A stretch of 64,000 nucleotides of DNA from Chitinophaga pinensis (GTDB lineage: Bacteria > Bacteroidota > Bacteroidia > UBA4408): positions 186,001 through 250,000 of the forward strand of contig CAMAVS010000003.1 of the NCBI GenBank assembly GCA_945861665.1. The letters are read 5' to 3'. Positions 16-40,224 of the stretch are shown piece by piece; the stretch's first letter is position 1, and each line of letters opens with the position of its first letter. The position numbers and the translations under genes are program-made. The notes under the pieces are model-generated. The model did no database searches and was not told the DNA's origin. It saw nothing but the letters and a program-made list of their open reading frames with translations.

Positions 16-771
16 ATGAAGTTTATTGCGGTTATTCCTGCTCGTTATGCTTCTACTCGTTTTCCGGGTAAACCGCTTGCTGATATTAATGGTGTGTCGA
101 TGATTGAAAGGGTTTATAACCGAGCAAAAGAATCAAAAAATATAAGCAGAGTGATAGTTGCAACGGACGATGAGAGAATTGTTGACTGTGTTAAAAAATT
201 TGGTGGTGAGGTAATCATTACGGATGTAAATCACCAAAGTGGAACCGATCGCTGTGCTGAAGTTGCTCTTAAAATTGGCTTGAAGATACAGGATGTTGTT
301 ATAAATGTGCAAGGAGACGAACCCTATATTTATGCAGCCCATATCGATGAATTAACTACTTGTTTCGAAACTGCAAAGGACGAGTTGGCAACCCTGGTTT
401 CTGTCATAAAAAGTGAACACGATGTTGTAAATTCGAACGTAGTTAAGGCAATATTGAACAAGAACAATGAAGCAATTTATTTTAGTCGCGCTGCTGTGCC
501 ACACAAACGAAATGCTGAATTAAGCGAATGGCTGAAGCAAGGACATTACTATAAACATGTTGGTATTTATGGGTATAAGGTAAGTACACTTTTAAGTATA
601 ACTCAATTGGATAAAAGTTTTTTAGAACTAACCGAGTCTCTTGAGCAGTTACGCTGGATTGAAAATGGCTACAAAATTAAAGTAAAAATTGTGTCGTCAA
701 GCACTTATACGGCAATTGATTCACCTGCCGATATTGAGCTGTTGTTGAAGCAATTAAAAGAGGGAATATGA
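16..771 (+). CDS. kdsB: 3-deoxy-manno-octulosonate cytidylyltransferase (CMP-KDO synthetase)
   Basis: MKFIAVIPARYASTRFPGKPL N-terminal nucleotidyltransferase motif; NVQGDEP motif; 251 aa. Confidence 0.95.
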   Translation: MKFIAVIPARYASTRFPGKPLADINGVSMIERVYNRAKESKNISRVIVATDDERIVDCVKKFGGEVIITDVNHQSGTDRCAEVALKIGLKIQDVVINVQGDEPYIYAAHIDELTTCFETAKDELATLVSVIKSEHDVVNSNVVKAILNKNNEAIYFSRAAVPHKRNAELSEWLKQGHYYKHVGIYGYKVSTLLSITQLDKSFLELTESLEQLRWIENGYKIKVKIVSSSTYTAIDSPADIELLLKQLKEGI

Positions 772-6813: not shown

Positions 6814-9354
6814 ATGAAAAATATAGATTTTAAAAAATTACTTCCCCACTTTTTTGCAGTATTATTTTTTGCTGTTATTACATTGGCTTATTTTTCTCCT
6901 TTATGGGAATTCCCATTTTCACATGGGGAAGCTAAAAAGATAAAGCAGGGCGATATTGTGAACTTTACAGGTATGTCGAAGGAGATTGTGGACTTTAGAA
7001 AAGAAAAGGGTCAAGAACCGCTTTGGACAAATTCGATGTTCGGAGGTATGCCGGCTTATCAAATTTCGGTTGCATATCCATCTAACTTACTTCCATTTTT
7101 TCGTGGAATACTTACATTGGGATTACCATTTCCTGCAAGCATATTGTTTTTATGCCTCATCGGTTTTTATATCTTGCTTATTACTTTTAGAATAGAACCA
7201 CTGTTGTCGGCTGCCGGAGCAATTGCCTTTTCATTTTCATCCTATTTTTTCATACTCATTGAGGCCGGGCATAATACAAAAGGTTTAGCAATTGCTTTCA
7301 TGGCTCCTGTTATTGCTGGTGTAATACTCACCTATCGGGGAAGGGTGTATTTGGGTGCCGCGATTACAGCTTTATTTTTATCACTTGAAATATTGGCGAA
7401 CCACTTACAAATTACTTATTATCTGTTGTTTATATTGCTTGCCTTAGCTGCTATTGAATTGTATGATGCAATAAAAAATAAGCATATTTCGCAGTTTGTT
7501 AAGCAATCGGCTTTTTTGGTAGTTGCGGCTATTTTGGCAATTGGTCCGAATATTACCAATTTATTAGCCACAGCGGAATACGGTAAATATACTACGCGTG
7601 GTCAGTCGGAGCTTACTGAAAATGCTGATAATAAAACTACAGGCTTAGATAGAGATTATGCAACTCAATGGAGTTATGGTGTTGGAGAAAGTTTTTCTTT
7701 GATGATTCCAAATTTTAAAGGTGGAGCATCGGGAGCAATAAATACGAATAAAGATAATAAGTCGGCCCTAGAAAATGTTGACCCACAATTTCGTGAGTAC
7801 GTTGGAAATATTGACCAATATTGGGGCGATCAACCCTTTACATCAGGTCCTGTTTATGTAAGCGCCATTATTTGTTTCCTATTTATGTTGGGTATGTTTT
7901 TTATTGAAGGTCCTATAAAATGGTGGCTTCTTTCTATAACTGTACTTTCTATTATGCTTTCGTGGGGTAACAACTTTATGCCTTTAACAGATTTCTTTTT
8001 AGATTATGTACCCGGTTATAATAAATTTAGGGCAGTATCAATGATACTGGTAATAGCAGAATTAGCGATACCTTTATTAGCCATACTAGCCATTAAAAAG
8101 ATTGTTGAAAAGCCTGACATCATAAAAGAAAAGCGTAAACAGGTTTATATTGCCTTAGGCTCAACTGCCGGCTTGTGTTTGTTATTTTATTTAATGCCGG
8201 GTATGTTTTTCGATTTCTTTAAAGCAGGTGAATACGATGATATAACGCAACAATTAAAAAAGAGTAAACTGAGTGAAGAGCAAATATCTATCTTTTTGAG
8301 CGGTGTTCAAGAAGCTCGAACAAGCATATTTGATGCCGATGTGTTACGAAGTTTATTTCTTATTTTATTAAGTGCAGCAACATTGTTTTTGTATTCGTTT
8401 AGTAAAATTGGGAAGAGTCTATTGTATGGGGTATTGTTTTTATTGATATTAGGCGACATGTGGTTGGTAAATAAAAGATACCTTAACAAGGATAGTTTTG
8501 TTACGAAGTCGAAAATGGAAAATCCATTCACTGCTTCTCAAGCCGATAATTTTATATTGGAAGATAAAGAGCCAGGCTTTAGGGTGCTTAACCTAAGCGT
8601 GAGTACTTTTAATGATGCCAGCACATCGTATTTTCATAAATCTATTGGTGGTTATCACGGTGCTAAATTAAAACGTTATCAAGAGTTAATTGATCACCAA
8701 TTGCAAAACAATATTCAGGCAACTATTGCAACTTTAAAGGATACAACAAGAACTTCTAACATCAATGCCACCCTTGCATCACTTCAAGGGGTTAATATGT
8801 TAAACACTAAATACATCATTTACAATCCTGATGCAGCCCCTTTAAAAAACCCGAACGCTTGTGGCAGTGCTTGGTTTGTGAAAAAATACAAGTTTGTGAA
8901 TAATTCGGATGAAGAAATAAAAGCATTGGAGACTGTAAAATTAAAAGAAGAGGTGTTGGTGGATAAGCGTTACGAAGCCGATTTAGCTGGTTTCTCTCCA
9001 TCATTTGATTCAACTTCAACCATTAAATTGGTGAGCTATGAGCCGAATCACTTAGTGTATGAATCGAAAACAAGCAAGGAACAACTGGCTGTTTTTTCTG
9101 AAATATATTACGACAAAGGATGGAATGTATATATTGATGGCGAAGCTAAAACCTATTTTAGGGGTGATTATTTGTTACGATCTATGAAAGTACCCGCTGG
9201 AAATCATAAAATAGAATTCAAGTTTGAACCAACAGTTTATAGTTCAGGTGAAAAGGTTGCATTGATAAGCAGCATCATATTGATTTTAGGATTAATTGCA
9301 GGCATTGCATTGGATATGAGAAGTAAAAATAAGGTCGTTACACAACAAGCATAA
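6814..9354 (+). CDS. YfhO-family multi-pass membrane protein (GT-C-like)
   Basis: Many TM segments; C-terminal YDKGWNVYIDGE..YFRGDYLLRSMKVPAGNHKIEFKFEP, typical of YfhO. Confidence 0.85.
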   Translation: MKNIDFKKLLPHFFAVLFFAVITLAYFSPLWEFPFSHGEAKKIKQGDIVNFTGMSKEIVDFRKEKGQEPLWTNSMFGGMPAYQISVAYPSNLLPFFRGILTLGLPFPASILFLCLIGFYILLITFRIEPLLSAAGAIAFSFSSYFFILIEAGHNTKGLAIAFMAPVIAGVILTYRGRVYLGAAITALFLSLEILANHLQITYYLLFILLALAAIELYDAIKNKHISQFVKQSAFLVVAAILAIGPNITNLLATAEYGKYTTRGQSELTENADNKTTGLDRDYATQWSYGVGESFSLMIPNFKGGASGAINTNKDNKSALENVDPQFREYVGNIDQYWGDQPFTSGPVYVSAIICFLFMLGMFFIEGPIKWWLLSITVLSIMLSWGNNFMPLTDFFLDYVPGYNKFRAVSMILVIAELAIPLLAILAIKKIVEKPDIIKEKRKQVYIALGSTAGLCLLFYLMPGMFFDFFKAGEYDDITQQLKKSKLSEEQISIFLSGVQEARTSIFDADVLRSLFLILLSAATLFLYSFSKIGKSLLYGVLFLLILGDMWLVNKRYLNKDSFVTKSKMENPFTASQADNFILEDKEPGFRVLNLSVSTFNDASTSYFHKSIGGYHGAKLKRYQELIDHQLQNNIQATIATLKDTTRTSNINATLASLQGVNMLNTKYIIYNPDAAPLKNPNACGSAWFVKKYKFVNNSDEEIKALETVKLKEEVLVDKRYEADLAGFSPSFDSTSTIKLVSYEPNHLVYESKTSKEQLAVFSEIYYDKGWNVYIDGEAKTYFRGDYLLRSMKVPAGNHKIEFKFEPTVYSSGEKVALISSIILILGLIAGIALDMRSKNKVVTQQA

Positions 9355-9363
9355 GAAAGGTAT

Positions 9364-10959
9364 ATGCGTTCGTTTTATAGTCATTTGGAAGCCATTCAAA
9401 GCGTTGGTGAAAGTTTGGTGATAAACCAAAAACCAACTTTCCGTTCCTCGGCTATTTTTCCTGTGCTGCACAATAAATATACCAGCTCCAAAATTATTTT
9501 TATGGGCTATTGGTTACTCAAGCGCCACATAAAGGAGATTGGTTTATTGTATACCTTGCGCAGCAAAGAAGGAAAAATACTTTCACGAAAATATAAATTG
9601 ATTGACTCCGCAAAGGCATTTTCAATTCACTTAGGGGAATTTACGAATGAAATGAATGAAAGTGGAACGATTGATAATTTTGAAGGCTCACTAGAGTTAG
9701 AAATATTTTCAACGCAAGATTTAGTCTTTCCATATCCTGCTTTTGTATTGGTTTATTATGGCGATACGTATAGTACCGCTGTTCATACAGTAGGTAGAAT
9801 TTATAATGACATCGAAGATTTAAGTATAAATGAAGAGTATAAGGTACGCGAGTCGGGCTTCGATATATATGGCAATACCAATTTATCGCCTTTTGTTGCA
9901 TTTACTAACGGACCTATCAAAAATGCTACCCCAAAAATTAGCTATGAAATAGTAAATGCTTCAGGAAAAACGCTTAAAGGGGAGTTTGTAATGAAGCCCA
10001 TACAAGCCTTTGAAACGGTTTTTATTCGTTTGAAGGAATACATAAAGCTGAATGAAATACTTGGCAACGATGAAGTAGGGACTATTCGCATAGGCCATAA
10101 TCTCGAAGGGTTTTTTCCACGTTTTGCTGTGGGGAATTTTGATGATAGCACCAAAACAATAAGTATAACACATACGTTTTACGATTCTTCTGAATTGAAG
10201 GATGATAAGTCTTTTTGGAACAGAAAGGATGAGCAATTCAATGATAGTTCCATAGCTATTCCTCTATACATTAAAAATAGTTTTTATACTCGTATTGCAA
10301 TCTATCCCATATTTTCGCCTTCCGATTTTAACTTGTCTTTTTCTTTTTATGATGAGAAGGGAGTATTGGTAAAGCATTTACCTAACCATCACGAAATAAA
10401 AAGTAGCGATAATAAATACGAGCAGATTGATTTTAAATCAATCGTACTGGCTGAAAATATTAATATAGATGCTGTTAGTTCTGTAAATTTAATTTGCAAC
10501 TGGAAGGACAAAACCCGCATTCCTACTCGAGTAAAATTTGGTTTAAACATAGGTGAAGAAGGCAAAGAAGTGTTACTGCCAAGCAATATTTGCTTTGCTC
10601 CGCAATTGGGTAACCCGAATATGTTGAAAAAGAAAGCAGCTTTTCGTTGGGCTCCATTTGTGAATATTGGAAATTCGGAAGTTGTACTTACCAATTCCGC
10701 TTCACTAAAAGAGTATAACACCGAAGCCAATGTAAGTGTTACTTTTCACCGTGAAGCAGATGATGCCATTATCACTAAAAGTTATGTTATTCCTGCAAAT
10801 GCGGTAGAAGTCATCAGTGTTATGAAGGACGAAGAATTGCGTTTGTTTTTTGATGAAAAAAGTGGATGGATGGCAGCCAACTCTGACAATCCATTCTTGT
10901 ACGGATACTATTTTGATTTTAATGAAAGCGGAGCAGTAGCAGCCGATCATATTTTTTAA
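9364..10959 (+). CDS. uncharacterised 531-aa protein, apparently cytoplasmic
   Basis: Long clean ORF closely spaced with downstream methyltransferase; no recognisable domain or signal peptide. Confidence 0.75.
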   Translation: MRSFYSHLEAIQSVGESLVINQKPTFRSSAIFPVLHNKYTSSKIIFMGYWLLKRHIKEIGLLYTLRSKEGKILSRKYKLIDSAKAFSIHLGEFTNEMNESGTIDNFEGSLELEIFSTQDLVFPYPAFVLVYYGDTYSTAVHTVGRIYNDIEDLSINEEYKVRESGFDIYGNTNLSPFVAFTNGPIKNATPKISYEIVNASGKTLKGEFVMKPIQAFETVFIRLKEYIKLNEILGNDEVGTIRIGHNLEGFFPRFAVGNFDDSTKTISITHTFYDSSELKDDKSFWNRKDEQFNDSSIAIPLYIKNSFYTRIAIYPIFSPSDFNLSFSFYDEKGVLVKHLPNHHEIKSSDNKYEQIDFKSIVLAENINIDAVSSVNLICNWKDKTRIPTRVKFGLNIGEEGKEVLLPSNICFAPQLGNPNMLKKKAAFRWAPFVNIGNSEVVLTNSASLKEYNTEANVSVTFHREADDAIITKSYVIPANAVEVISVMKDEELRLFFDEKSGWMAANSDNPFLYGYYFDFNESGAVAADHIF

Positions 10960-10977
10960 TGTATAAAAATTAGCAGA

Positions 10978-11628
10978 ATGATTAAAACAGAACAAACACA
11001 ATTTTGGGAAGGTGAATTTGGTAAGGAGTATACCGACCGTAACTCACGTGATAATGCTGATTGGGATAATTATTATACCGAAAATTATGGCATCACTAAA
11101 ATTGCAATGAATGAAAATTTTCTTTCAGGATTGCCACTGGATGCAAAGTTGTTGGAAGTAGGTTGCAACACAGGTATGCAATTGGTAGGCTTTCAACGAA
11201 TGGGATTTAAAAATATTTACGGTGTGGAGTTACAACCCTATGCTGCAGAAAAGGCAAAGGAATACACCAAGAACATTAATATAATTAGTGCCTCTGGTTT
11301 TGATATACCTTTCAAGGATAAGTATTTTGATTTAGTTTGTACCAATGGTGTTCTTATACACATTGACCCAAATGACTTATCGCTTATAATGGACGAGATG
11401 TATCGTTGTTCAAAAAAATACATTTTTGGTTTGGAATATTATGCAGATAGTTTGAAGACAATAAACTACCGAGGAAACGAAAATTATTTGTGGAAAGCTG
11501 ATTATGCAAGCCTTTTCTTAGAACGTTTTCCTGATTTGAAATTAGTAAAAAAGGAAATCTATCCATACATAACAGAAGCAAATAAAGGAAACGCAGATTC
11601 AATGTACTTGTTGGAAAAAACCAAGTAA
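10978..11628 (+). CDS. SAM-dependent methyltransferase, pseudaminic-acid-biosynthesis-associated type
   Basis: EQTQFWEGEFGKEYTDRNSRDN N-terminus and LLEVGCNTGMQL SAM motif. Confidence 0.8.
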   Translation: MIKTEQTQFWEGEFGKEYTDRNSRDNADWDNYYTENYGITKIAMNENFLSGLPLDAKLLEVGCNTGMQLVGFQRMGFKNIYGVELQPYAAEKAKEYTKNINIISASGFDIPFKDKYFDLVCTNGVLIHIDPNDLSLIMDEMYRCSKKYIFGLEYYADSLKTINYRGNENYLWKADYASLFLERFPDLKLVKKEIYPYITEANKGNADSMYLLEKTK

Positions 11629-11630
11629 CA

Positions 11631-13058
11631 ATGCTCTTTAATTCCCTTGAGTTTTTACTTTTTTTTCCTTTAGTTACCATTCTTTATTTTTTATTGAAGC
11701 ACCCTTACCGATGGATTCTTCTATTGGCGGCAAGTTGTGTGTTTTATATGTTTTTTAAGCCTGTTTACATTCTTATTTTAGGGTTCACAATTGTTATCGA
11801 TTATATTGCCGGTATTTATATAGAGAAAGCAGCCGATAAGAAGCAAAAGAAAAAATTTCTTGTCCTTAGTATCATTGCGAATGTTGGTGTACTTGCCATT
11901 TTTAAATACTATAATTTTTTTAACGACAATATTACTTCCTTGGCATCTTTTATGGGGTTTTCTAACTCCATTCCCTATTTAAACATACTTCTTCCAATTG
12001 GACTCTCCTTCCATACTTTTCAAGCAATGAGTTATACCATTGAAGTGTATCGTGGAAATCAAAAGGCCGAGCGCCATTTTGGAATTTATGCATTGTATGT
12101 GATGTTCTATCCTCAGTTGGTTGCAGGTCCTATTGAGCGACCACAAAATATTCTCCCTCAATTACATACTGAGAAAAATTTTAATTATGAAAGTGCTGTG
12201 ATAGGTTTACGACTGATGCTTTGGGGCTTTTTTAAAAAGATGGTGATTGCAGATAATTTAAGCATCATAGTCGACAATGTATATAATAATCCTTCGCAAC
12301 AAAATGGATTTACTTTTTTAATAGCAACTTATTTTTTTACTTTTCAAATATATTGTGATTTTTCAGGTTATTCTGATATAGCCTTAGGTTCCGCTAAAAT
12401 TATGGGTTTCAACCTAATGAAGAATTTTAATATTCCTTATATTTCAAAATCAATTAAGGAATTTTGGGAGCGTTGGCATATCTCCCTTTCATCGTGGTTT
12501 CGCGATTATCTCTACATTCCTTTGGGTGGAAATAGGGTAAAGAAATCGAGGTGGATTTTAAATCTCTTTATCGTTTTTTTAGTGAGTGGCTTTTGGCACG
12601 GAGCAAACTGGACCTTTATTGTGTGGGGTGCCTTGCACGGTACTTACCTTATTTTGGAGATACTACTTAAACCAACAACCGATAAACTGCTTGACACAAC
12701 TTCAAAGTTCGGCAAGTTTATTTCTGTTATTATAACCTTTCATCTGGTAATGCTTGCCTGGATATTTTTCAGAGCAAGCTCTATCGAGGCGGCAATATTT
12801 GCGTTGAATCAAATATTTACCAATCTGTTCACTTCGTTTTCTCTTACAGGAACCGCATCTGCGCCTTTGCTTATTTTTTCTTTGTTTATCACTGCTACAC
12901 TGTTTTATATTATCGATTTTATGAAAGAAAACAAAAGAATCAAAGAGCTATTCTTTTCTTCATCTTACTTGCGTTACGGTGTATATTTATTTTTAATATA
13001 TACCATTTTACTTTTTGGTAATACCGATAAAACACAATTTATATATTTCCAATTTTAA
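11631..13058 (+). CDS. MBOAT family O-acyltransferase (AlgI/DltB-like)
   Basis: MLFNSLEFLLFFPLVTILYFLL; GLSFHTFQAMSYTIEVYRG; GFWHGANWTFIVWGALHG with the MBOAT His. Confidence 0.92.
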   Translation: MLFNSLEFLLFFPLVTILYFLLKHPYRWILLLAASCVFYMFFKPVYILILGFTIVIDYIAGIYIEKAADKKQKKKFLVLSIIANVGVLAIFKYYNFFNDNITSLASFMGFSNSIPYLNILLPIGLSFHTFQAMSYTIEVYRGNQKAERHFGIYALYVMFYPQLVAGPIERPQNILPQLHTEKNFNYESAVIGLRLMLWGFFKKMVIADNLSIIVDNVYNNPSQQNGFTFLIATYFFTFQIYCDFSGYSDIALGSAKIMGFNLMKNFNIPYISKSIKEFWERWHISLSSWFRDYLYIPLGGNRVKKSRWILNLFIVFLVSGFWHGANWTFIVWGALHGTYLILEILLKPTTDKLLDTTSKFGKFISVIITFHLVMLAWIFFRASSIEAAIFALNQIFTNLFTSFSLTGTASAPLLIFSLFITATLFYIIDFMKENKRIKELFFSSSYLRYGVYLFLIYTILLFGNTDKTQFIYFQF

Positions 13059-13059
13059 G

Positions 13060-13983
13060 ATGCGCAAACTGCTAAATAAAATAATTTTAATTCTGTTGTT
13101 GAGCATTGTTACTTTCCGCATTATTGGAGTTTTCGACAATATTGCATTCGATAACAGAGATGTTGCGCGAATAAAAGTTTCCGAACAATTTAAAAATTTG
13201 GATTACTTGATTTTAGGTAATTCGCATAGTTATGCAGGAGTCGATATTGCTTTATTTGATAGCGTAGGCTTAAAGGCTTATAATTTAGCTTGTCCTGCTG
13301 CTGGACCTTACACCATTAAATTGGTGCTGGAAAACTACTTAAAAACAACTAATACGCCACCAAAAAATATTATTCTGAATCTTGGTCCCGAGATGTTTTC
13401 ACCCAGCAGTGATGTGTTTGAAAAATACCCCATTCACCGCTACCTTAACCCCGCCATTAGTAATGAAAAATTATTGTTTAACGGAATGGTGGGTGCAGGA
13501 GAGTACGGTAAATTATTTGTAAAAAGTGCAAAACAGGGTGCTCAGAAATTACTTGTAACTAACAAAAAAATAACTGAATCACTTATTCAATACAATTTTT
13601 TATTGAAAGGATTTGCCGTTCGACCGACAGTTTATACTGAGTCTTTGTATAAAAAGGATTTTAGTAAGTACAAGGTTTTTTCTGGTTATGATTATGATAC
13701 AAAAAAGGAAAATGTGTTTTTGTCATTATTGGATTATTGCCATTCACTCAACATAAAAGTATACCTGCATCCTATACCCAATAACAAACTGGGTGCTTTT
13801 TTAAGTCCACAATTGGCACAGGGTTATGCTACTTTATTAAATAAGTTAATGGTTGATAAAAATGTAGCTGTTTTAATTTACCCCGATTATTTTCCGGAAT
13901 ATTGGTTTGCCGATATTGACCATATGAATAACAGTGGAGCAACTATTTACACACGGTTTTTATTACAAAAAATTATACATTAA
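13060..13983 (+). CDS. membrane-anchored SGNH/GDSL-like protein, probable partner of the MBOAT
   Basis: N-terminal TM; DYLILGNSHSYAGVD block and C-terminal DIDHMNNSGA (DxxH); ATG 1 bp after the MBOAT stop. ORF track start at 13015 overlaps the MBOAT gene. Confidence 0.65.
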   Translation: MRKLLNKIILILLLSIVTFRIIGVFDNIAFDNRDVARIKVSEQFKNLDYLILGNSHSYAGVDIALFDSVGLKAYNLACPAAGPYTIKLVLENYLKTTNTPPKNIILNLGPEMFSPSSDVFEKYPIHRYLNPAISNEKLLFNGMVGAGEYGKLFVKSAKQGAQKLLVTNKKITESLIQYNFLLKGFAVRPTVYTESLYKKDFSKYKVFSGYDYDTKKENVFLSLLDYCHSLNIKVYLHPIPNNKLGAFLSPQLAQGYATLLNKLMVDKNVAVLIYPDYFPEYWFADIDHMNNSGATIYTRFLLQKIIH

Positions 13984-14010
13984 CTTTGTCTAACATTCAA
14001 AAACCGTATT

Positions 14011-14682
14011 ATGATTGAAATGCCCGATTTCTCGAAACCGTATTTTTACGAAAACAATTACAACTTGACTTCCGATGTGAATCGCTTGGCAAAAGTACTT
14101 GCACATTATGAAATTTATAAGTTGCAACACGATGTACCTGGAGCCATTGTAGAATGTGGCGTATTTAAAGGTTCTTCCCTTATTCGCTTTACTACAATCC
14201 GCCACCTAATGGGAAATCCCGTTGGAAAAAAGGTAATAGGTTTTGATATGTTTGGGGAATTTCCCGAAACCAAGTTTGATGCGGATCAAAAATCACGACA
14301 AAAGTTTATTACCGATAGTGGTGAGCAAGGCATTGACGAAGACCAGTTGATGAAAGTGTTTAAACACAAAGGCATTGACCAAAATGTGGAATTGGTAAAA
14401 GGGGATGTGAATATTACTGTTCCGGAATATTTAAAAAAGAACCCCGAGTTAAGAATATCTTTGTTGAACATTGATGTGGATGTATATGAGGCAACTAAAA
14501 CCTGTATAGAAAGTTTGTACCCTCACGTGGTGAAAGGCGGAGTGATTGTGTTAGACGATTATGTAAGTACTTTTCCGGGTGCAAACAAAGCAGTGGAAGA
14601 TTATTTACGCGATAAGAAAGTAGATATTAAACGGTTTCCGTTTAGTGTTACTCCGTGTTATTTTGTGAAACAAGAAATGTAA
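14011..14682 (+). CDS. TylF/MycF-type methyltransferase
   Basis: GAIVECGVFKGSSLIRF; VIGFDMFGEFPET; LLNIDVDVYEATKTCIESLYPHVVKGGVIVLDDY. Confidence 0.85.
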   Translation: MIEMPDFSKPYFYENNYNLTSDVNRLAKVLAHYEIYKLQHDVPGAIVECGVFKGSSLIRFTTIRHLMGNPVGKKVIGFDMFGEFPETKFDADQKSRQKFITDSGEQGIDEDQLMKVFKHKGIDQNVELVKGDVNITVPEYLKKNPELRISLLNIDVDVYEATKTCIESLYPHVVKGGVIVLDDYVSTFPGANKAVEDYLRDKKVDIKRFPFSVTPCYFVKQEM

Positions 14683-14689
14683 TTCGCGT

Positions 14690-16474
14690 ATGAAAACCTA
14701 CAATATACTTGAAATTGCTAATGTGCACGCAGGCAGTGTTGAATATATGCATAAGCTGTTGGATGAATATGAGGAATTTAAAACCGATTTCGGTATTAAA
14801 TTCCAACCCTTTAAATACGACAAGATTGCCCTAGCAGATTATGCTTGGTACGAAGTCTACAAAGAATTGTATTTTTCACCTGAGCAATGGAAAAACTTAA
14901 TTTTAAAAGCATCTAAGACCAAGGATGTGTGGATAGATACTTTTGATGAATATACTTTTCAAATTGTATCGGAGAATCTTGCTTTGATAAAAGGACTGAA
15001 ATTTCAAGCATCGGTGTTGAACAATAAAAAGCTCATTCGTCAGTTTTCTTCACTTGATTTTACAACTAAAACCATCATTCTTAATATTTCAGGGATTGAA
15101 CTGGATGCTATTGATAAAGTAGTTGCGGAATTCAAACAACTTCTTAATCCCAAAGAAATTATTTTGCAGATTGGATTTCAGAGTTATCCCACACAAATGG
15201 AAGACAGTGGTTTAACAAAAATTAAAACCTTGCAAAGCAGGTATAATAACGACTTGAGTTTTGCCGACCACATAGCTCCCGAAAATGAGGATGGCTATAT
15301 TTTACCTGTTACGGCTGCTTTGATGGGTGTAAAATACATTGAGAAACACATACGTTTATCGGGCGAAAAACCCAAGTATGATTTTCATAGCAGTATGGAT
15401 TTGAAAGAGTATAGAAAATACCTTGAAGTATTATCGGCATATAGCCTCGCTATGGATCAGCCATTTATCAATACACAAGAAGAAAATTACCTTTCAGCTT
15501 CTATTCAAATTCCGGTTTTGGCGCACGATATGGCTGCCGGTAAAATACTTTCGTTGAACAGTGATTTTGAATTTAAGCGAAGCAATCAAACAGGTTTACG
15601 GGCAAACGAAATAGAAAATGCCATCAATAATTTTTCAGTATTGTCTACTTCAAAAAAGGCATTTGAAACATTACAGGAAGGTGATTTTAAAAAGGCAAAC
15701 ATTGCGAGTATTATTGCTTGCCGAATGAAATCATCGCGTTTACCTAAAAAGGCAATTTTACCAATAGGTAATTTGCCATCGGTTGAATTGTGTATAAAAA
15801 ACGCTCTCTCGTTTAAAAATGTACAACAAACCATATTGGCTACATCAACGGTTGAAGAAGATGCAGTCTTAAGCAAGTATACTTTTAATAAAGGTGTGTT
15901 GTTTCACCAAGGGCATCCTTTGGATGTTATGCAACGCTACATCGATGCAGTTGAAAAATACAATATTGATGTTATTATCCGTATTACTGCTGATATGCCT
16001 TATGTTAGTAATGAGGTAGCCGAAATTATGCTCAAATCACATTTCGAAACTGGTGCCGATTATTCACGACCTGTAAAAGCAGCTATAGGTACAGGTTTGG
16101 AAATAATAAATACAGAAGCATTGAAGAGGGTGAAATCTTATTTCCCATCGGCTGATTACTCTGAGTATATGACCTATTACTTTACCAATAATCCAGCTTA
16201 TTTTAAAATCAATGAAGTTCAATTCCCGGATAATTTAGTAAGAGATTACAGACTGACCCTCGATTACGAAGAGGATTTGGTTTTATTCAATAAGGTGCAA
16301 AAGTATTTAGACGATAATAAATTAGAAAACACACTCAAAAACATTTACAGCTATTTAGATCGTAATCCTGAAATTGCTTCTATTAATAAGGGTTTAGAAG
16401 TGAAGTATCTTACTGATAAAACACTTATTGATACACTTAATAAGTACACTACAATAAAAAGCATAGCGGATTGA
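14690..16474 (+). CDS. fused nonulosonate synthase (NeuB/PseI-type, with SAF-like region) and SpsF/PseF-type cytidylyltransferase
   Basis: N-term ILEIANVHAGS..IKFQPFK, YIEKHIRL; middle IQIPVLAHDMAAGKIL SAF-like; C-term IASIIACRMKSSRLPKKAILPIGNLPSVELCIKNAL..RITADMPYVSNEV..DYRLTLDYEEDL SpsF-like. Confidence 0.85.
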   Translation: MKTYNILEIANVHAGSVEYMHKLLDEYEEFKTDFGIKFQPFKYDKIALADYAWYEVYKELYFSPEQWKNLILKASKTKDVWIDTFDEYTFQIVSENLALIKGLKFQASVLNNKKLIRQFSSLDFTTKTIILNISGIELDAIDKVVAEFKQLLNPKEIILQIGFQSYPTQMEDSGLTKIKTLQSRYNNDLSFADHIAPENEDGYILPVTAALMGVKYIEKHIRLSGEKPKYDFHSSMDLKEYRKYLEVLSAYSLAMDQPFINTQEENYLSASIQIPVLAHDMAAGKILSLNSDFEFKRSNQTGLRANEIENAINNFSVLSTSKKAFETLQEGDFKKANIASIIACRMKSSRLPKKAILPIGNLPSVELCIKNALSFKNVQQTILATSTVEEDAVLSKYTFNKGVLFHQGHPLDVMQRYIDAVEKYNIDVIIRITADMPYVSNEVAEIMLKSHFETGADYSRPVKAAIGTGLEIINTEALKRVKSYFPSADYSEYMTYYFTNNPAYFKINEVQFPDNLVRDYRLTLDYEEDLVLFNKVQKYLDDNKLENTLKNIYSYLDRNPEIASINKGLEVKYLTDKTLIDTLNKYTTIKSIAD

Positions 16475-17481
16475 AAAGGCGTGTTATTTTCAGGGTAGAT
16501 GGTAATAGCCAAATTGGCTTGGGGCATATTGTTAGGTGTTGTGCTTTTGCTGAAATGTTGAGAATGGATTTCGAAATTCTATTTTCTGTTATTTCACCCT
16601 CTGAATCGATTAAGCAAATAATTAATAGTGTTTCAACTCATATTACTGAACTTTCAGATAAGGATGAATTAGTTTTCTTTAAGAGTCTTGAAAAGAATGA
16701 TATTGTAATATTGGATGGTTATGCCTTTAGTTCGGAATATCAAAAAAGTATAAAGGGAAAAGGTTGCAAGTTAATATGTATAGATGATTTACATTCTATT
16801 CATTTTGTTGCGGATGCTGTCATTAATCAAAGCGCCTCAGTTTCAATTCAAGAGTATTCGATTGAGGATTATACGAAATTATATTTGGGCTTTGATTATG
16901 CTTTATTGAGAACTCCTTTTCTAATTGTAGCAAAGATAAAAAGAGAAATAGGTAATGTAAGTAAAGCTTTTGTGAGTATGGGTGGAGCTGATAGTAATAA
17001 TGTATCACTAAAAGTAATTGATGCAATAATTGAAAGTGGTAGGTTTAATCTTGTTAATGTTTTAATTGGTTCAGCAAATAAGAATACTGAATTGATAAAG
17101 GAATATACTAAGAAGCAAAGCAATTTTAGAATACAGTTACACCTTGACTTAAGTGCAGAACAAGTATTTAAAACTATTCAAGGTAGTGATGTTGCATTTT
17201 GTCCGGCAAGTTCCATTGCACTTGAATGTTGTGCAGTTGGGATTCCTCTTTTTGTTGGATTTACAGCTGATAATCAGATAGGGATTTTAAATACACTGGT
17301 TAAGAAAGGTGCTGCAATAAATGTGGGTAATTGGAATGAACTTGATTCATCCAAAATTGCATCAAAAATCAATGAATGTGATTTTAGTATTGATTTCTGC
17401 AACAGTATGATTGATGGCCAAAAGAAGCTCATTGATGGTAAGTCTGGAAGTCGGTTATTAGAAATTGTTAAAATACTTTAA
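16471..17481 (+). CDS. pseG: PseG-like UDP-sugar hydrolase
   Basis: RVIFRVDGNSQIGLGHIVRCCAFAEML; TTG start overlapping upstream TGA by TTGA. Confidence 0.85.
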   Translation: MKRRVIFRVDGNSQIGLGHIVRCCAFAEMLRMDFEILFSVISPSESIKQIINSVSTHITELSDKDELVFFKSLEKNDIVILDGYAFSSEYQKSIKGKGCKLICIDDLHSIHFVADAVINQSASVSIQEYSIEDYTKLYLGFDYALLRTPFLIVAKIKREIGNVSKAFVSMGGADSNNVSLKVIDAIIESGRFNLVNVLIGSANKNTELIKEYTKKQSNFRIQLHLDLSAEQVFKTIQGSDVAFCPASSIALECCAVGIPLFVGFTADNQIGILNTLVKKGAAINVGNWNELDSSKIASKINECDFSIDFCNSMIDGQKKLIDGKSGSRLLEIVKIL

Positions 17482-17955
17482 ATGTTACATTACAGATTTG
17501 CGCAAGAGTCCGATGTTGACCTGTATTATGAGTGGGCGAATGATGTGTCTGTGAGAAGTAATTCATATAGTCAATCAAAAATCGACTACGATATTCATGT
17601 AAATTGGTTTTTAAGAAAATTAAACAATAAGAATTGTTTTTTCTATTTATTTTTTAATGAAAAAAAAGAGGCTGTTGGTCAAGTTAGGATTGAAAAGAAG
17701 GGGAATGAAACAATAATTGGAATATCGATTGATACTTTTCATAGAGGGCATTCATATTCCTGTGAAATGCTAAAGAAATCGTGTCATGATTATTTAGAAA
17801 AATATCCTTTAGATAAAATTACTGCTTATATTAAAATTGAAAACACCCTATCTTTAAAAAGCTTTCAGAATGCGGGTTTTATGGATTTGCAAGAAGTTAA
17901 TTTTGAAGGAGTAAAAAGTTGTAAATTGGACTATTTTTTTCTCGAAATAGATTAG
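17482..17955 (+). CDS. GNAT acetyltransferase, PseH-like
   Basis: MLHYRFAQESDVDLYYEWANDVSVRSNSYSQSKI; starts directly after the pseG stop. Confidence 0.8.
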   Translation: MLHYRFAQESDVDLYYEWANDVSVRSNSYSQSKIDYDIHVNWFLRKLNNKNCFFYLFFNEKKEAVGQVRIEKKGNETIIGISIDTFHRGHSYSCEMLKKSCHDYLEKYPLDKITAYIKIENTLSLKSFQNAGFMDLQEVNFEGVKSCKLDYFFLEID

Positions 17956-31935: not shown

Positions 31936-33150
31936 ATGATTCCATTTTCACCTCCTCACATCGATCAAAAAATAATCGATGAAGTAATAGCTGCACTTAA
32001 ATCGGGCTGGATAACCACCGGTCCGCGTACCAAAAAATTCGAAAAGCAATTAACGGCATATTGTGGTAATAAAAGTACTATTTGTTTAAATTCAGCCACT
32101 GCTGGTTTGGAGCTAATGTTGCGTTGGTATGGAGTTAAAGAGGGTGATGAGGTAATATTACCTGCTTATACTTATTCGGCTACAGCAAATGTAGTGATGC
32201 ATTGTGGGGCAATCCCTGTTTTTGTAGATACAAATGCCGATGATTTCAATATAAACATTTCGGCCATTGAAAAGGCAATTACAAATAAAACAAAAGTGGT
32301 AATGCCTGTTGATTTTGCAGGATTTCCTTGTGATTACGACAACATTAATGCCTTGATTTCACGAGCAGATATAGTAGCGAAATTTAATGCAAGTACCGAA
32401 AATCAAAAATTGTTAGGAAGGATATTAGTTTTATCCGATTCAGCACATTCTATTGGAGCAGAATACAAAGGCAAAAAAACAGGTAGTCTTACAGATGTAT
32501 CCGTATTTTCATTTCACGCTGTAAAAAATTTGAGCACTGCCGAAGGTGGTTCCATCGCTTTTAATTTACCCGAACCATTTAACAACGATGAAATTTATGC
32601 CAAGCTTTGTATTTCATCTTTACACGGACAAAACAAAGATGCTTTGGCTAAAATGCAAAAAGGGAATTGGAAGTACGATATTGTAGAGGCAGGCTATAAA
32701 TGTAATATGACTGACATTATGGCTGCTATTGGTTTGGTGGAATTGGAGCGTTATGACAGTGATACATTGGTAAAACGAGCAGCTATCTTCGAGAAGTATG
32801 TACAGGCTTTGAGCAAAAAAGCTTGGGCGGAACTGCCTGTTTACAAAACAAATGAGAGACTCACTTCATACCATCTATTTCCATTACGAATAAAGGGTGT
32901 TACAGAAGCGCAACGTGATGAAATTATGAAAAATATTTTTGATGAGGATGTATCGGTTAACGTTCACTTTATTCCTGTTCCGATGCTTAGTTTTTATAAA
33001 AATCAAGGTTATGATATTAAAAACTATCCCATTACATACAATAATTTTTCGCGCGAAATAACATTGCCCGTATTTTACGATTTAAGCGATGTGCAAATAG
33101 ATACTGTAATTGCCGCTGTTATAAAAGCTGTTCACAAGGTATTAGGATAA
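31936..33150 (+). CDS. DegT/DnrJ/EryC1/StrS-family PLP aminotransferase
   Basis: MIPFSPPHIDQKIIDEVIAALKSGWITTGPRTKKFE; VFSFHAVKNLSTAEGG PLP-Lys region. Confidence 0.92.
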   Translation: MIPFSPPHIDQKIIDEVIAALKSGWITTGPRTKKFEKQLTAYCGNKSTICLNSATAGLELMLRWYGVKEGDEVILPAYTYSATANVVMHCGAIPVFVDTNADDFNINISAIEKAITNKTKVVMPVDFAGFPCDYDNINALISRADIVAKFNASTENQKLLGRILVLSDSAHSIGAEYKGKKTGSLTDVSVFSFHAVKNLSTAEGGSIAFNLPEPFNNDEIYAKLCISSLHGQNKDALAKMQKGNWKYDIVEAGYKCNMTDIMAAIGLVELERYDSDTLVKRAAIFEKYVQALSKKAWAELPVYKTNERLTSYHLFPLRIKGVTEAQRDEIMKNIFDEDVSVNVHFIPVPMLSFYKNQGYDIKNYPITYNNFSREITLPVFYDLSDVQIDTVIAAVIKAVHKVLG

Positions 33151-33151
33151 T

Positions 33152-33742
33152 ATGTTAAAACGCTTATTCGATATTTTTTTCTCTTTATTAGGTCTCATTA
33201 TATTGGCAACAATTTTTTTAATTATTGCAATTCTCATTTTGGTTGATTCTCGAGGAGGTTTGTTTTATAAGCAGTTGCGTGTTGGATATAATAATACCGA
33301 CTTCAAACTTTTTAAATTTCGTACGATGGAAGCAGGTGCTGATACAAAAGGTTTGATTACAGTTGGCTCGCGTGATAGTCGGGTTACACTAATTGGCTAT
33401 TATTTACGAAAATATAAAATAGATGAATTGCCGCAACTATTTAACGTATTAATTGGAGATATGAGTTTGGTTGGACCACGTCCGGAAGTTAGGAAGTACG
33501 TAAATATGTATACAAAAAATCAGTTAAGAGTTTTGTCAGTAAAGCCCGGAATTACAGACTATGCTTCCATAGAATACTCAAATGAAAATGAAGTGTTGGG
33601 AAAAGTAAACAATCCTGACGAGCTGTATATTACCGAGATAATGCCTGCAAAATTGGCACTTAATGTGAAATATATTGATGAAAAAAACACTTTCAAAGAC
33701 ATCTCAATTATTTTAAGAACATTGTTCAAAATTGTTTCATAG
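33152..33742 (+). CDS. sugar transferase, PglC-like monotopic phosphoglycosyl transferase
   Basis: LKRLFDIFFSLLGL; KFRTMEAGADTKG; LRKYKIDELPQLFNVLIGDMSLVGPRPE. Confidence 0.92.
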   Translation: MLKRLFDIFFSLLGLIILATIFLIIAILILVDSRGGLFYKQLRVGYNNTDFKLFKFRTMEAGADTKGLITVGSRDSRVTLIGYYLRKYKIDELPQLFNVLIGDMSLVGPRPEVRKYVNMYTKNQLRVLSVKPGITDYASIEYSNENEVLGKVNNPDELYITEIMPAKLALNVKYIDEKNTFKDISIILRTLFKIVS

Positions 33743-38241: not shown

Positions 38242-40224
38242 GTGTCATCGAACCCAATCAAAAATAAATTAAGTGTTGTAATCGTTAATTACAATGTAGA
38301 GTGTTTTTTGGAGCAGTGCCTTCACTCTGTTATGAAAGCCGCATCAAAAATATCGACTGAAATTTTTGTGGTTGATAATAATTCGGTTGATGGTTCGGTT
38401 CAAATGGTAAAAGATAAATTCTCCACTATTATCTGCATTGAGAATAAAGACAATAAGGGGTTTTCCTTTGCCAATAATCAAGCAATAAAAATTGCCACAG
38501 GTGAATACATTTTACTACTCAATCCTGATACTGTTGTGGAAGAAGACACTTTTGAGAAAGTGGTTGCTTTTATGGATAAACATCATGATGCTGGTGGTTT
38601 AGGTGTTAAAATGATTGATGGTAAAGGGAATTTTTTGCCCGAGTCGAAAAGAGGATTACCAACACCCACTGTTGCTTTTTATAAAATTTTTGGAATTGCC
38701 GCACTTTTTCCTAAATCCAAAATTTTCGGAAAATACCACTTAGGATTCCTCGATAAGGAGAGCATACACGAAATAGAAATACTATCGGGTGCATTTATGT
38801 TAATGCGCAAAAAAACCTTGGATAAGGTTGGCTTGCTGGATGAGAATTTTTTTATGTACGGTGAAGATATTGACTTGTCGTACCGTATTATTAAAGGTGG
38901 TTATAAAAACTACTATTTCCCCGAAACAAGCATTATACATTACAAAGGTGAGAGTACTAAAAAAAGCAGTGTAAATTATGTGATTGTGTTTTATAAAGCA
39001 ATGGTGATTTTTGCACAAAAGCATTTCTCCCAAAAAAATGCAAAAACTTTTTCCTTTCTAATCAATATTGCTATTTATTTAAGGGCAGCAGCTGCTATAG
39101 TTACCCGTTTTTTACAACGTATGGTAGCTCCTGTAATTGATTCGTTGGTGATATTTATTGGAATTTATTTGATAAAAAATTATTACGAGCATTACATAAA
39201 GCAGTCCGACAGCACTTATTATCCTGCTGAATATATGTGCTATGTTGTTCCGGCTTATATTTTAGTATGGCTTTTTTCTGTGTTTTTGGCTGGTGGTTAT
39301 GATAAACCATTACGCTTACTTAAAATAGTGAACGGATTAATGTTAGGCACTGCCATCATATTAATTGTGTACGCATTGTTACCCGAACAGTATCGCTATT
39401 CGCGAGGTCTTATTTTGTTAGGAGCCTTGTGGTCCTTGTTATCAATGTTTTGTTGCAGATTTGCGTTTCATTTGTCGGGTATAAAAAAATACTCCTTAAC
39501 AGCGTATCAAAAAAAGCGGATCGTTATTGTTGGCAGTGAAGAGGAAGTCGTTCGTGTAAATAGTTTGTTGAACCAAACTTCCATCAATGTAAATTTATTG
39601 GGATTTATATCAAGCAATGAAACAAGCTTGTCTGATAAAAGATTCATTGGAAAAGTTTCACAGTTACAAGAAATAATACAGGTTTATAAAATTGAGGAGG
39701 TGGTGTTTTGTTCAAAAGACTTAACTGTTCAGCAAATTATTTATCAAATGTCGCTCAACTGTGATATTGATTATAAAATAGCACCACCAGAAAGTTTGTA
39801 CCTTATTGGTAGTAGTTCTATTCACACTTCGGGCGATTTATATACCATTGATATAAATTCAATTTCAAAGCCAGACAATGTTAGAAATAAAAGAGTTTTG
39901 GATATTCTTACTTCTTTATTATTATTGATTTGTAGTCCTGTACTTCTTTTTTTTGTACATAACCAAATACAGTTTTTAATAAATATATTCCGCGTGCTTC
40001 TCGGTAACGTATCTTGGGTTGGCTATGCCAATGAAGGGGATAGTTTACAACAAAAATTACCCGACATTAAAAAGGGAATATTAACTCCGGCTGATTCTTT
40101 TAGTAAATTTGATACTGAGGCAAACACTCTTCATCGGTTGAATGTGTTGTATTCAAAAGACTACAGTATTTTAAATGATTTAAGTATACTGTGGCACTCG
40201 TTTAGGGAAATTGGAAGGACTTAA
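38242..40224 (+). CDS. family 2 glycosyltransferase fused to a degenerate WbaP/WcaJ-like module
   Basis: N-term SVVIVNYNVECFLEQCLHSV..FVVDNNSVDGS..LLLNPDT GT2; then TM bundle, Rossmann-like RIVIVGSEEEVVRVNSLL, and C-term RNKRVLDILTSLLLLICSP..LLGNVSWVGYANEG; GTG start. Confidence 0.85.
   Translation: MSSNPIKNKLSVVIVNYNVECFLEQCLHSVMKAASKISTEIFVVDNNSVDGSVQMVKDKFSTIICIENKDNKGFSFANNQAIKIATGEYILLLNPDTVVEEDTFEKVVAFMDKHHDAGGLGVKMIDGKGNFLPESKRGLPTPTVAFYKIFGIAALFPKSKIFGKYHLGFLDKESIHEIEILSGAFMLMRKKTLDKVGLLDENFFMYGEDIDLSYRIIKGGYKNYYFPETSIIHYKGESTKKSSVNYVIVFYKAMVIFAQKHFSQKNAKTFSFLINIAIYLRAAAAIVTRFLQRMVAPVIDSLVIFIGIYLIKNYYEHYIKQSDSTYYPAEYMCYVVPAYILVWLFSVFLAGGYDKPLRLLKIVNGLMLGTAIILIVYALLPEQYRYSRGLILLGALWSLLSMFCCRFAFHLSGIKKYSLTAYQKKRIVIVGSEEEVVRVNSLLNQTSINVNLLGFISSNETSLSDKRFIGKVSQLQEIIQVYKIEEVVFCSKDLTVQQIIYQMSLNCDIDYKIAPPESLYLIGSSSIHTSGDLYTIDINSISKPDNVRNKRVLDILTSLLLLICSPVLLFFVHNQIQFLINIFRVLLGNVSWVGYANEGDSLQQKLPDIKKGILTPADSFSKFDTEANTLHRLNVLYSKDYSILNDLSILWHSFREIGRT

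What the first reader, a model, noticed from the sequence alone, without database searches (positions are those of the whole stretch)
9364..17955. Nonulosonic-acid synthesis and decoration locus with an unusual gene set
Eight collinear, tightly packed genes: unknown 531-aa protein, pseudaminic-associated methyltransferase, MBOAT acyltransferase, SGNH-like partner, TylF-like methyltransferase, NeuB-SpsF fusion, PseG-like, PseH-like. This contains late pseudaminic-type steps (hydrolase, N-acetyltransferase, synthase, CMP activation) plus two methyltransferases and an O-acylation pair, but no PseB-type dehydratase, PseC-type aminotransferase or glycosyltransferase in the cluster. It suggests a heavily decorated nonulosonate, perhaps with different early enzymes. 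This is the best candidate for an undescribed system in the window. The DegT aminotransferase (31936) and PglC-like transferase (33152) are separate and may or may not contribute.
Basis: partly seen in the sequence, partly recalled or inferred. Interest (0 to 1): 0.65.

Follow-up and report, generated by a model that had tools for sequence, protein, structure and literature searches.

The report
Scattered pseudaminic-acid pathway with fused enzyme
The eight genes are part of an otherwise fairly ordinary bacterial pathway for pseudaminic acid, a sialic-acid-like surface sugar, whose other steps lie elsewhere in the same genome; the unusual part is one enzyme that joins the sugar-activating domain to a second, altered copy of the sugar-building domain.

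Summary
The eight collinear genes are real. The early steps are not exotic: the same genome holds a canonical PseB about 54 kb upstream (528 bits, cut-off 408) and a canonical PseI on another contig (477, cut-off 340). The best PseC candidate is the DegT gene at 31936, below cut-off (297 vs 424). Relatives carry the same parts in complete Pse operons, e.g. PseB-PseC-fusion-PseG-PseH-PseI, and the unknown 531-aa gene sits between PseC and the methylase in a family member's Pse operon. So this is a dispersed pseudaminic-acid pathway with methylation and O-acylation genes.

The unusual part is the NeuB-SpsF fusion. SpsF is the only PseF candidate in the genome. Its NeuB half is a second, divergent NeuB-family domain, found in seven family-level groups of Bacteroidia, always beside a separate PseI where enough sequence is available. 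Pocket positions are invariant in 15 sequences, but residues beside the PEP site are uniformly replaced. I infer an active or ligand-binding domain with a changed ligand. The papers searched do not describe it. New variant of a known kind.

The parts
6814..9354 (+). YfhO-family membrane protein, possibly a polyprenyl-phosphate-dependent glycosyltransferase; possible first gene of the transcription unit
   Evidence: PF09586 34.6 bits, over cut-off; ends 9 bp before the next gene; YfhO homologues also lie near Pse loci in L049, L051, L053, L057, L064
9364..10959 (+). unknown 531-aa protein, Pse-operon-associated
   Evidence: no Pfam/NCBIfam match; 66-67% identical protein in G006 lies between PseC and PseMT of a full Pse operon; no other hit in 395 + 396 genomes; structure model unreliable (pLDDT 45)
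10978..11628 (+). pseudaminic acid biosynthesis-associated methylase
   Evidence: TIGR03587 261 bits, cut-off 112; homologues in the Pse operons of L058, L064 and L072
11631..13058 (+). MBOAT acyltransferase (DltB/AlgI-like)
   Evidence: PF03062 105 bits; 57% homologue next to the fusion in L058, 38% upstream of PseB in L065
13060..13983 (+). SGNH-like membrane-anchored partner of the MBOAT protein
   Evidence: N-terminal hydrophobic anchor, GNSH and DIDH motifs; homologue in L058 keeps G, S and DxxH
14011..14682 (+). TylF-family methyltransferase
   Evidence: PF05711 81 bits; not conserved next to other fusions
14690..16474 (+). fusion: NeuB-like barrel plus SAF domain (residues 1 to about 335) and SpsF-type cytidylyltransferase (about 338-594), proposed CMP-pseudaminate synthetase
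   Evidence: AlphaFold pLDDT 89; Foldseek TM (target-normalised) 0.76 to 3g8r and PseI 8h2c, 0.86 to cytidylyltransferase 6oew
16471..17481 (+). PseG, UDP-sugar hydrolase
   Evidence: TIGR03590 183 bits, cut-off 154; PDB 3hbm/3hbn match
17482..17955 (+). PseH-like GNAT acetyltransferase
   Evidence: PF13302 42 bits; TIGR03585 34 bits, below cut-off 93; PseH-like genes next to fusions in relatives also score below cut-off
31936..33150 (+). DegT aminotransferase, best candidate for PseC in this genome (uncertain)
   Evidence: TIGR03588 297 bits, cut-off 423.5; the next best in the genome score 235 and 229; relatives' true PseCs score 453-470 and are only 27-31% identical to it

Best explanation
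The cluster makes and decorates pseudaminic acid (Pse), with the pathway split over at least three places in the genome. Order of steps: PseB (orphan gene, C3:140270-141286) acts on UDP-GlcNAc; an aminotransferase follows, probably the DegT at 31936; PseH (17482) and PseG (16471) are in the cluster; PseI (orphan gene on contig C9) adds PEP to give Pse; the SpsF half of 14690-16474 activates it to CMP-Pse. PseMT (and perhaps the TylF enzyme) methylate the sugar; the MBOAT-SGNH pair acylates the finished glycan on the periplasmic side. Shown by sequence: the gene identities, canonical PseB and PseI in the genome, a single PseF candidate, and the recurrence of the same parts in complete Pse operons. 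Inferred: every catalytic step. The NeuB half of the fusion is an additional NeuB relative that keeps metal, sugar-side and SAF residues but has a uniformly altered PEP-side pocket. I think it is an active or ligand-binding domain that works beside PseI on a different ligand (about 0.5 for an enzyme with changed substrate, 0.25 for a ligand sensor, 0.15 for pure docking to PseI, 0.1 for degenerate).
For: PseB 527.7 bits and PseI 477.3 bits, both over equivalog cut-offs. LegB (74.5 vs cut-off 475) and NeuB (287.5 vs 399.65) alternatives for those two genes fail. Only two CTP_transf_3 proteins in the genome, KdsB and the fusion; the same holds in G279, G327 and G366, while G352 has only the fusion. 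Relatives with the fusion: L057 = PseB-PseC-fusion-PseG-PseH-PseI; L058 = PseB-PseC-PseMT-amidotransferase-HisH-like-fusion-MBOAT-SGNH-PseH-PseI; L049, L051, L053, L059, L060, L061, L062 and L065 all have PseI in the locus. G000, G279, G373 and G327 each hold exactly two NeuB domains, PseI plus this one. The NeuB-like halves form one clade (100/100) far from PseI. All 11 alignable positions of the published NeuB pocket list are invariant in 15 such sequences, which share 39-58% identity with the window's where full length (list from PMC6795526). SpsF signature residues are invariant. Literature precedent: a Vibrio Pse cluster lacking NeuA/PseF has an SpsF-like domain fused to an aldo-keto reductase, and PseAc2 was detected in that strain (PMC7371886).
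Against: No aminotransferase passes the PseC cut-off in this genome, so one step is unassigned by strict criteria. The PseH hit is below cut-off. PseB and PseI are orphans far from the cluster, so co-regulation is not shown. G316, G149 and G373 have further cytidylyltransferases, so 'sole PseF' holds only for part of the set. Standalone SpsF relatives exist beside a non-PseI synthase (L063, L064), so the NeuB half is not needed for SpsF to exist. The assignment of D83 to T110, N132 to S154 and Q164 to N184 depends on the alignment (MAFFT and hhalign differ locally).
Confidence: 0.72

Rival explanations
1. The NeuB half is a second, fully active PEP-dependent nonulosonate synthase that makes a different nonulosonate, which the attached SpsF half activates; the organism then makes two nonulosonates with one CMP-synthetase.
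For: Equivalents of E25, K53, Q55, F112, K129, Y186, H215, E234, H236, D247 and R314 are invariant; the model has the full barrel plus SAF domain. Fusion of synthase to activation enzyme would suit channelling.
Against: Positions near PEP are uniformly changed (T110 to D83, S154 to N132, N184 to Q164, S213 to A192), and the 70-85 loop that sets sugar specificity (PMC7371886) is shortened. The minimal six-gene operon L057 offers only one hexose substrate, already used by PseI.
Confidence: 0.25
2. The NeuB half no longer catalyses; as a NeuB paralogue it pairs with PseI and tethers the CMP-synthetase to the synthase, or senses Pse as feedback.
For: Presence alongside PseI in every locus of adequate length; NeuB enzymes are domain-swapped dimers (PMC6795526). 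In L063/L064, whose SpsF groups with the window's (86/95, not fully supported), the NeuB half is absent and the local synthase is not PseI-type.
Against: A docking domain need not keep every pocket residue invariant; a sensor could. No interaction data.
Confidence: 0.3
3. The locus is a decaying remnant: PseC is lost and PseB and PseI are scattered, so no Pse is made.
For: No over-cut-off PseC; PseB and PseI are displaced from the cluster.
Against: All ORFs are intact and tightly packed; PseB, PseG and PseI score over equivalog cut-offs; a DegT candidate exists; the genome is in 13 contigs, so a gene could lie in a gap.
Confidence: 0.1
4. One reading: an undescribed nonulosonate made by different early enzymes.
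For: No early genes in the cluster itself; PseC step unassigned.
Against: Canonical PseB and PseI in the same genome and in relatives' operons.
Confidence: 0.05

Closest known systems
Pseudaminic acid pathway of Campylobacter jejuni (PseB, C, H, G, I, F)
   Same: PseB, PseG and PseI are over equivalog cut-offs; PseH- and PseC-like genes present
   Different: genes dispersed; PseF replaced by an SpsF-type domain; SpsF fused to an extra NeuB-like domain; added methylase, MBOAT-SGNH and the 531-aa gene
SpsF-aldo-keto reductase bifunctional protein of the Vibrio sp. B9-25K2 Pse cluster (PMC7371886)
   Same: an SpsF-like cytidylyltransferase fused to another enzyme domain stands in for NeuA/PseF in a Pse cluster; PseAc2 was detected in that strain
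   Different: the partner domain is an aldo-keto reductase, not a NeuB-like barrel with SAF domain
Bacillus subtilis sps genes (SpsE, SpsF, SpsG; PMC7439481)
   Same: SpsF as CMP-nonulosonate activation step; SpsE and SpsG are the NeuB- and PseG-type relatives
   Different: legionaminic acid, separate proteins, one synthase only
Leptospira NeuB-phosphatase fusion (PMC3438082)
   Same: a NeuB-family domain fused to another pathway domain
   Different: the fused partner is a phosphatase; the reaction proposed goes through a phosphorylated Neu5Ac
SfmA of Shewanella oneidensis (PMC3765264)
   Same: a PseI-like NeuB-domain protein needed for normal, species-specific modification around a Pse-like sugar
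   Different: 290 aa, not fused to a cytidylyltransferase, no clear separate PseI in that genome, different gene neighbourhood
AlgI/AlgJ or PatA/PatB type O-acylation pairs (recalled, not tested)
   Same: MBOAT gene followed by a membrane-anchored SGNH-like gene
   Different: next to nonulosonate genes; donor and target unknown

Membership tests
Pseudaminic acid biosynthesis | inverting UDP-GlcNAc 4,6-dehydratase PseB | tested here: met
   TIGR03589 527.7 bits vs cut-off 407.75, elsewhere in the genome
Pseudaminic acid biosynthesis | PseC aminotransferase | tested here: inconclusive
   best DegT (31936) 297 bits vs cut-off 423.5; relatives' PseCs 453-470
Pseudaminic acid biosynthesis | PseH N-acetyltransferase | tested here: inconclusive
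   GNAT family with 33.7 bits vs cut-off 93; similarly weak scores in complete operons of relatives
Pseudaminic acid biosynthesis | PseG hydrolase | tested here: met
   183.3 bits vs cut-off 153.55
Pseudaminic acid biosynthesis | PseI synthase | tested here: met
   separate gene on contig C9, 477.3 bits vs cut-off 340.25; the fusion's NeuB half does not meet it (59.5 bits)
Pseudaminic acid biosynthesis | CMP-Pse synthetase (PseF) | tested here: inconclusive
   the SpsF domain is the only non-KdsB CTP_transf_3 in the genome but matches no PseF equivalog model; activity not testable
Pseudaminic acid biosynthesis | pseudaminate present in the cell | not testable with these tools
   needs DMB/quinoxaline LC-MS
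Legionaminic acid biosynthesis | LegB dehydratase and NeuB/LegI-type synthase | tested here: not met
   PseB protein scores 74.5 vs LegB cut-off 475; PseI protein scores 287.5 vs NeuB cut-off 399.65
NeuB synthase family (for the NeuB half of the fusion) | NeuB barrel and SAF domain | tested here: met
   PF03102 64.5 bits, cut-off 22.1; model matches 3g8r, 8h2c and 1xuu with TM about 0.7-0.76
NeuB synthase family (for the NeuB half of the fusion) | residues on the PEP side: T110, S154, N184, S213 | tested here: not met
   replaced by D83, N132, Q164, A192 in all 15 sequences; D83, N132 and Q164 are alignment-dependent, A192 is anchored on the invariant DH motif; N184 varies in known synthases too (PMC7371886)
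NeuB synthase family (for the NeuB half of the fusion) | metal and sugar-side residues E25, K53, Q55, K129, Y186, H215, E234, H236, D247, R314 | tested here: met
   E8, K37, Q39, K104, Y166, H194, E218, H220, D231, R297 invariant
SpsF cytidylyltransferase | N-terminal CMP-sugar synthetase signature | tested here: met
   A343, C344, R345, S348, R350, L351, K354 invariant; CTP_transf_3 88.8 bits; 6oew TM 0.86

The most novel reading that the evidence does not exclude
The NeuB half of the fusion is an enzyme with an undescribed reaction: a NeuB-fold domain with a re-built PEP pocket that acts next to PseI (on a different donor, a different sugar, or Pse itself), giving a new nonulosonate that the attached SpsF half activates, across several Bacteroidia lineages.
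Probability: 0.35. Interest if true: 0.68.

Novelty: new variant of a known kind. Interest (0 to 1): 0.45.

Why it matters
NeuB sequences are used to predict which nonulosonate a bacterium makes. A NeuB-family domain that accompanies PseI, yet differs at the PEP-side positions, would mislead such predictions, and would be either a new reaction or a rare case of a synthase reused as a sensor or dock for the next enzyme. The fusion also adds to the evidence that SpsF-type domains replace PseF in pseudaminic-acid pathways, and the 531-aa gene is a Pse-operon-associated family without any known function.

Tried and rejected
Different early enzymes: rejected after finding canonical PseB and PseI in the genome. 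Legionaminic type: rejected on LegB and NeuB scores. Azospirillum plasmid hit as a distant fusion: rejected, because the locus has PseI and PseF as adjacent separate ORFs. Structure of the 531-aa protein: a two-sequence alignment gave pLDDT 45, not usable; a profile search in 396 genomes of the phylum gave no new members. A first alignment suggested that K129 was lost in the NeuB half; this came from a one-column shift, and anchoring on L066/L067 and on the predicted strand 100-105 restores K104. Literature searches for a NeuB-SpsF fusion in pseudaminic clusters found none; the library holds only open-licence papers, so this is weak evidence of absence. The sites used in the permutation test were partly chosen after seeing the alignment; the fairer statement is 11 of 11 alignable positions of the published list invariant, against 58 of 328 columns overall.
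Full report
Observation. They are packed with gaps of -4 to +27 bp. The SGNH-like gene more likely starts at 13060 than at the TTG at 13015. The YfhO-family gene 6814-9354 ends 9 bp before the cluster on the same strand and may be part of the unit; the promoter and terminator scans add nothing.

Where the missing steps are. The window lies at C3:186001-250000 of a 2.49-Mb, 13-contig genome of 99.8% completeness. PseB is an orphan gene at C3:140270-141286, 527.7 bits against a cut-off of 407.75; PseI is an orphan on contig C9, 477.3 against 340.25. Scores for LegB and for NeuB-type synthase on the same proteins stay far below their cut-offs, so the type is pseudaminic rather than legionaminic. 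No aminotransferase passes the PseC cut-off. The best is the DegT at window 31936 (297 bits); the other two candidates sit in other nucleotide-sugar and glycan clusters. Relatives have true PseCs of 453-470 bits that are only 27-31% identical to the DegT. This step is therefore open. There are only two CTP_transf_3 proteins in the genome, KdsB at window 16-771 and the fusion, so the SpsF half is the only PseF candidate.

Relatives. The fusion is absent from the seven other genomes of the order that are held, but occurs at 45-57% identity in six other genomes of a 395-genome sample of the class, each in a different family-level group, as split adjacent genes in G366, and in further Bacteroidota contigs. 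In these it sits in Pse operons: L057 is PseB-PseC-fusion-PseG-PseH-PseI; L058 adds PseMT, an N-acetyl sugar amidotransferase with a HisH-like protein, and an MBOAT-SGNH pair like that of the window. PseI is encoded in the locus of every relative whose contig is long enough (L049, L051, L052/L062, L053, L057-L061, L065). G000, G279, G373 and G327 hold exactly two NeuB domains, PseI and the fusion's. In L063 and L064 an SpsF 62-63% identical to the window's stands alone, and the synthase tested there (L063) scores as NeuB-type rather than PseI. The SpsF tree puts these two inside the fused group, without full support, which suggests a loss of the NeuB half.

The 531-aa gene. One homologue, 66-67% identical, was found in 395 genomes of the class, in the family member G006, which lacks the fusion. 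There it sits between PseC (470 bits) and PseMT in an operon with PseB, a PseG-PseH fusion and PseI. It therefore belongs with Pse synthesis, and the adjacency to PseMT is conserved. Its fold could not be predicted.

The NeuB half. It scores 64.5 bits for the Pfam NeuB family but only 59.5 for the PseI and 73 for the NeuB equivalog models. A 14-sequence alignment gave a confident model (pLDDT 89.4) with the complete barrel, SAF domain and cytidylyltransferase; nearest solved structures are 3g8r and PseI 8h2c for the first half and 6oew for the second. The fifteen NeuB halves (one from the split pair) form one clade with full support, far from PseI. Published pocket positions of N. meningitidis NeuB are E25, Q55, N74, T110, F112, K129, N184, Y186, S213, H215, E234, F288 and R314 (PMC6795526). 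Eleven can be aligned and all eleven columns are invariant in the fifteen sequences, against 58 of 328 columns overall. E25, Q55, F112, K129, Y186, H215, E234 and R314 are kept, as are K53, H236 and D247. T110, S154, N184 and S213 are replaced by D83, N132, Q164 and A192 in every sequence, and the loop holding N74 is shortened. PMC7371886 places positions 110, 129, 131, 132, 182 and 184 around PEP and the 70-85 loop at the sugar's C4-C6; that S154 and S213 line the PEP site is from my own knowledge of the structure. The conserved but altered pocket argues against a decayed domain and for a changed ligand. The exact column for D83, N132 and Q164 depends on the alignment; A192 and H194 do not.

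Likely working. PseB, an aminotransferase, PseH and PseG make 2,4-diacetamido-2,4,6-trideoxy-L-altrose, PseI adds PEP, and the SpsF half activates the product. A precedent exists in Vibrio sp. B9-25K2, whose Pse cluster lacks NeuA/PseF and has an SpsF-like domain fused to an aldo-keto reductase; PseAc2 was found in that strain. PseMT and perhaps the TylF enzyme methylate the sugar; the MBOAT-SGNH pair probably acylates the finished glycan outside the inner membrane, by analogy with alginate acetylation (own knowledge). What the NeuB half adds is not known. An enzyme with changed substrate is my first choice, a sensor or dock for PseI the second. All catalytic steps are inferred.

Verdict. The finding is real, its main reading (exotic early steps) is not supported, and the interesting core is the fusion protein, a new variant of a known kind.

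Noticed in passing
L066:8496-9191 and L067:7793-8488 (G035, G031): A 231-aa PseI-like barrel without SAF domain next to an SpsF gene and a second NeuB with SAF domain; the short one keeps the PEP-side residues. Possible two-subunit synthase.
   Followed up: partly
L049, L051 (Flavobacteriales contigs): Pse loci with PseB, fusion and PseI but without a recognised PseC or PseG; instead a Cys/Met-type PLP enzyme (417 aa), a GDSL-like protein and a double-GNAT protein whose second half is PseH-like.
   Followed up: partly
L058:6595-8351 (G149): N-acetyl sugar amidotransferase (TIGR03573, over cut-off) with a class-I glutamine amidotransferase (HisH-like) inside the Pse operon, pointing to an acetamidino-type Pse.
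   Followed up: partly
window 6814-9354; L049, L051, L053, L057, L064: YfhO-family membrane protein genes repeatedly lie near Pse loci, though on varying strands; possible functional link or shared genomic neighbourhood.
   Followed up: no
window 38242-40224: 660-aa protein with an N-terminal glycosyltransferase-2-like part followed by a membrane part resembling the polyprenyl glycosylphosphotransferase family (read by eye).
   Followed up: no
window 31936-33742: DegT aminotransferase directly followed by a short PglC-like phosphoglycosyltransferase, an arrangement that could also serve a bacillosamine-like sugar; a 633-aa PglF-like dehydratase lies on contig C12 (L013:254-2155).
   Followed up: partly
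L014 (G000:C4:104000-123999): Cluster of UDP-sugar dehydrogenase, Gfo/Idh-type oxidoreductase, acyltransferase and DegT aminotransferase, resembling a UDP-2,3-diacetamido-uronic acid pathway (read by eye).
   Followed up: no
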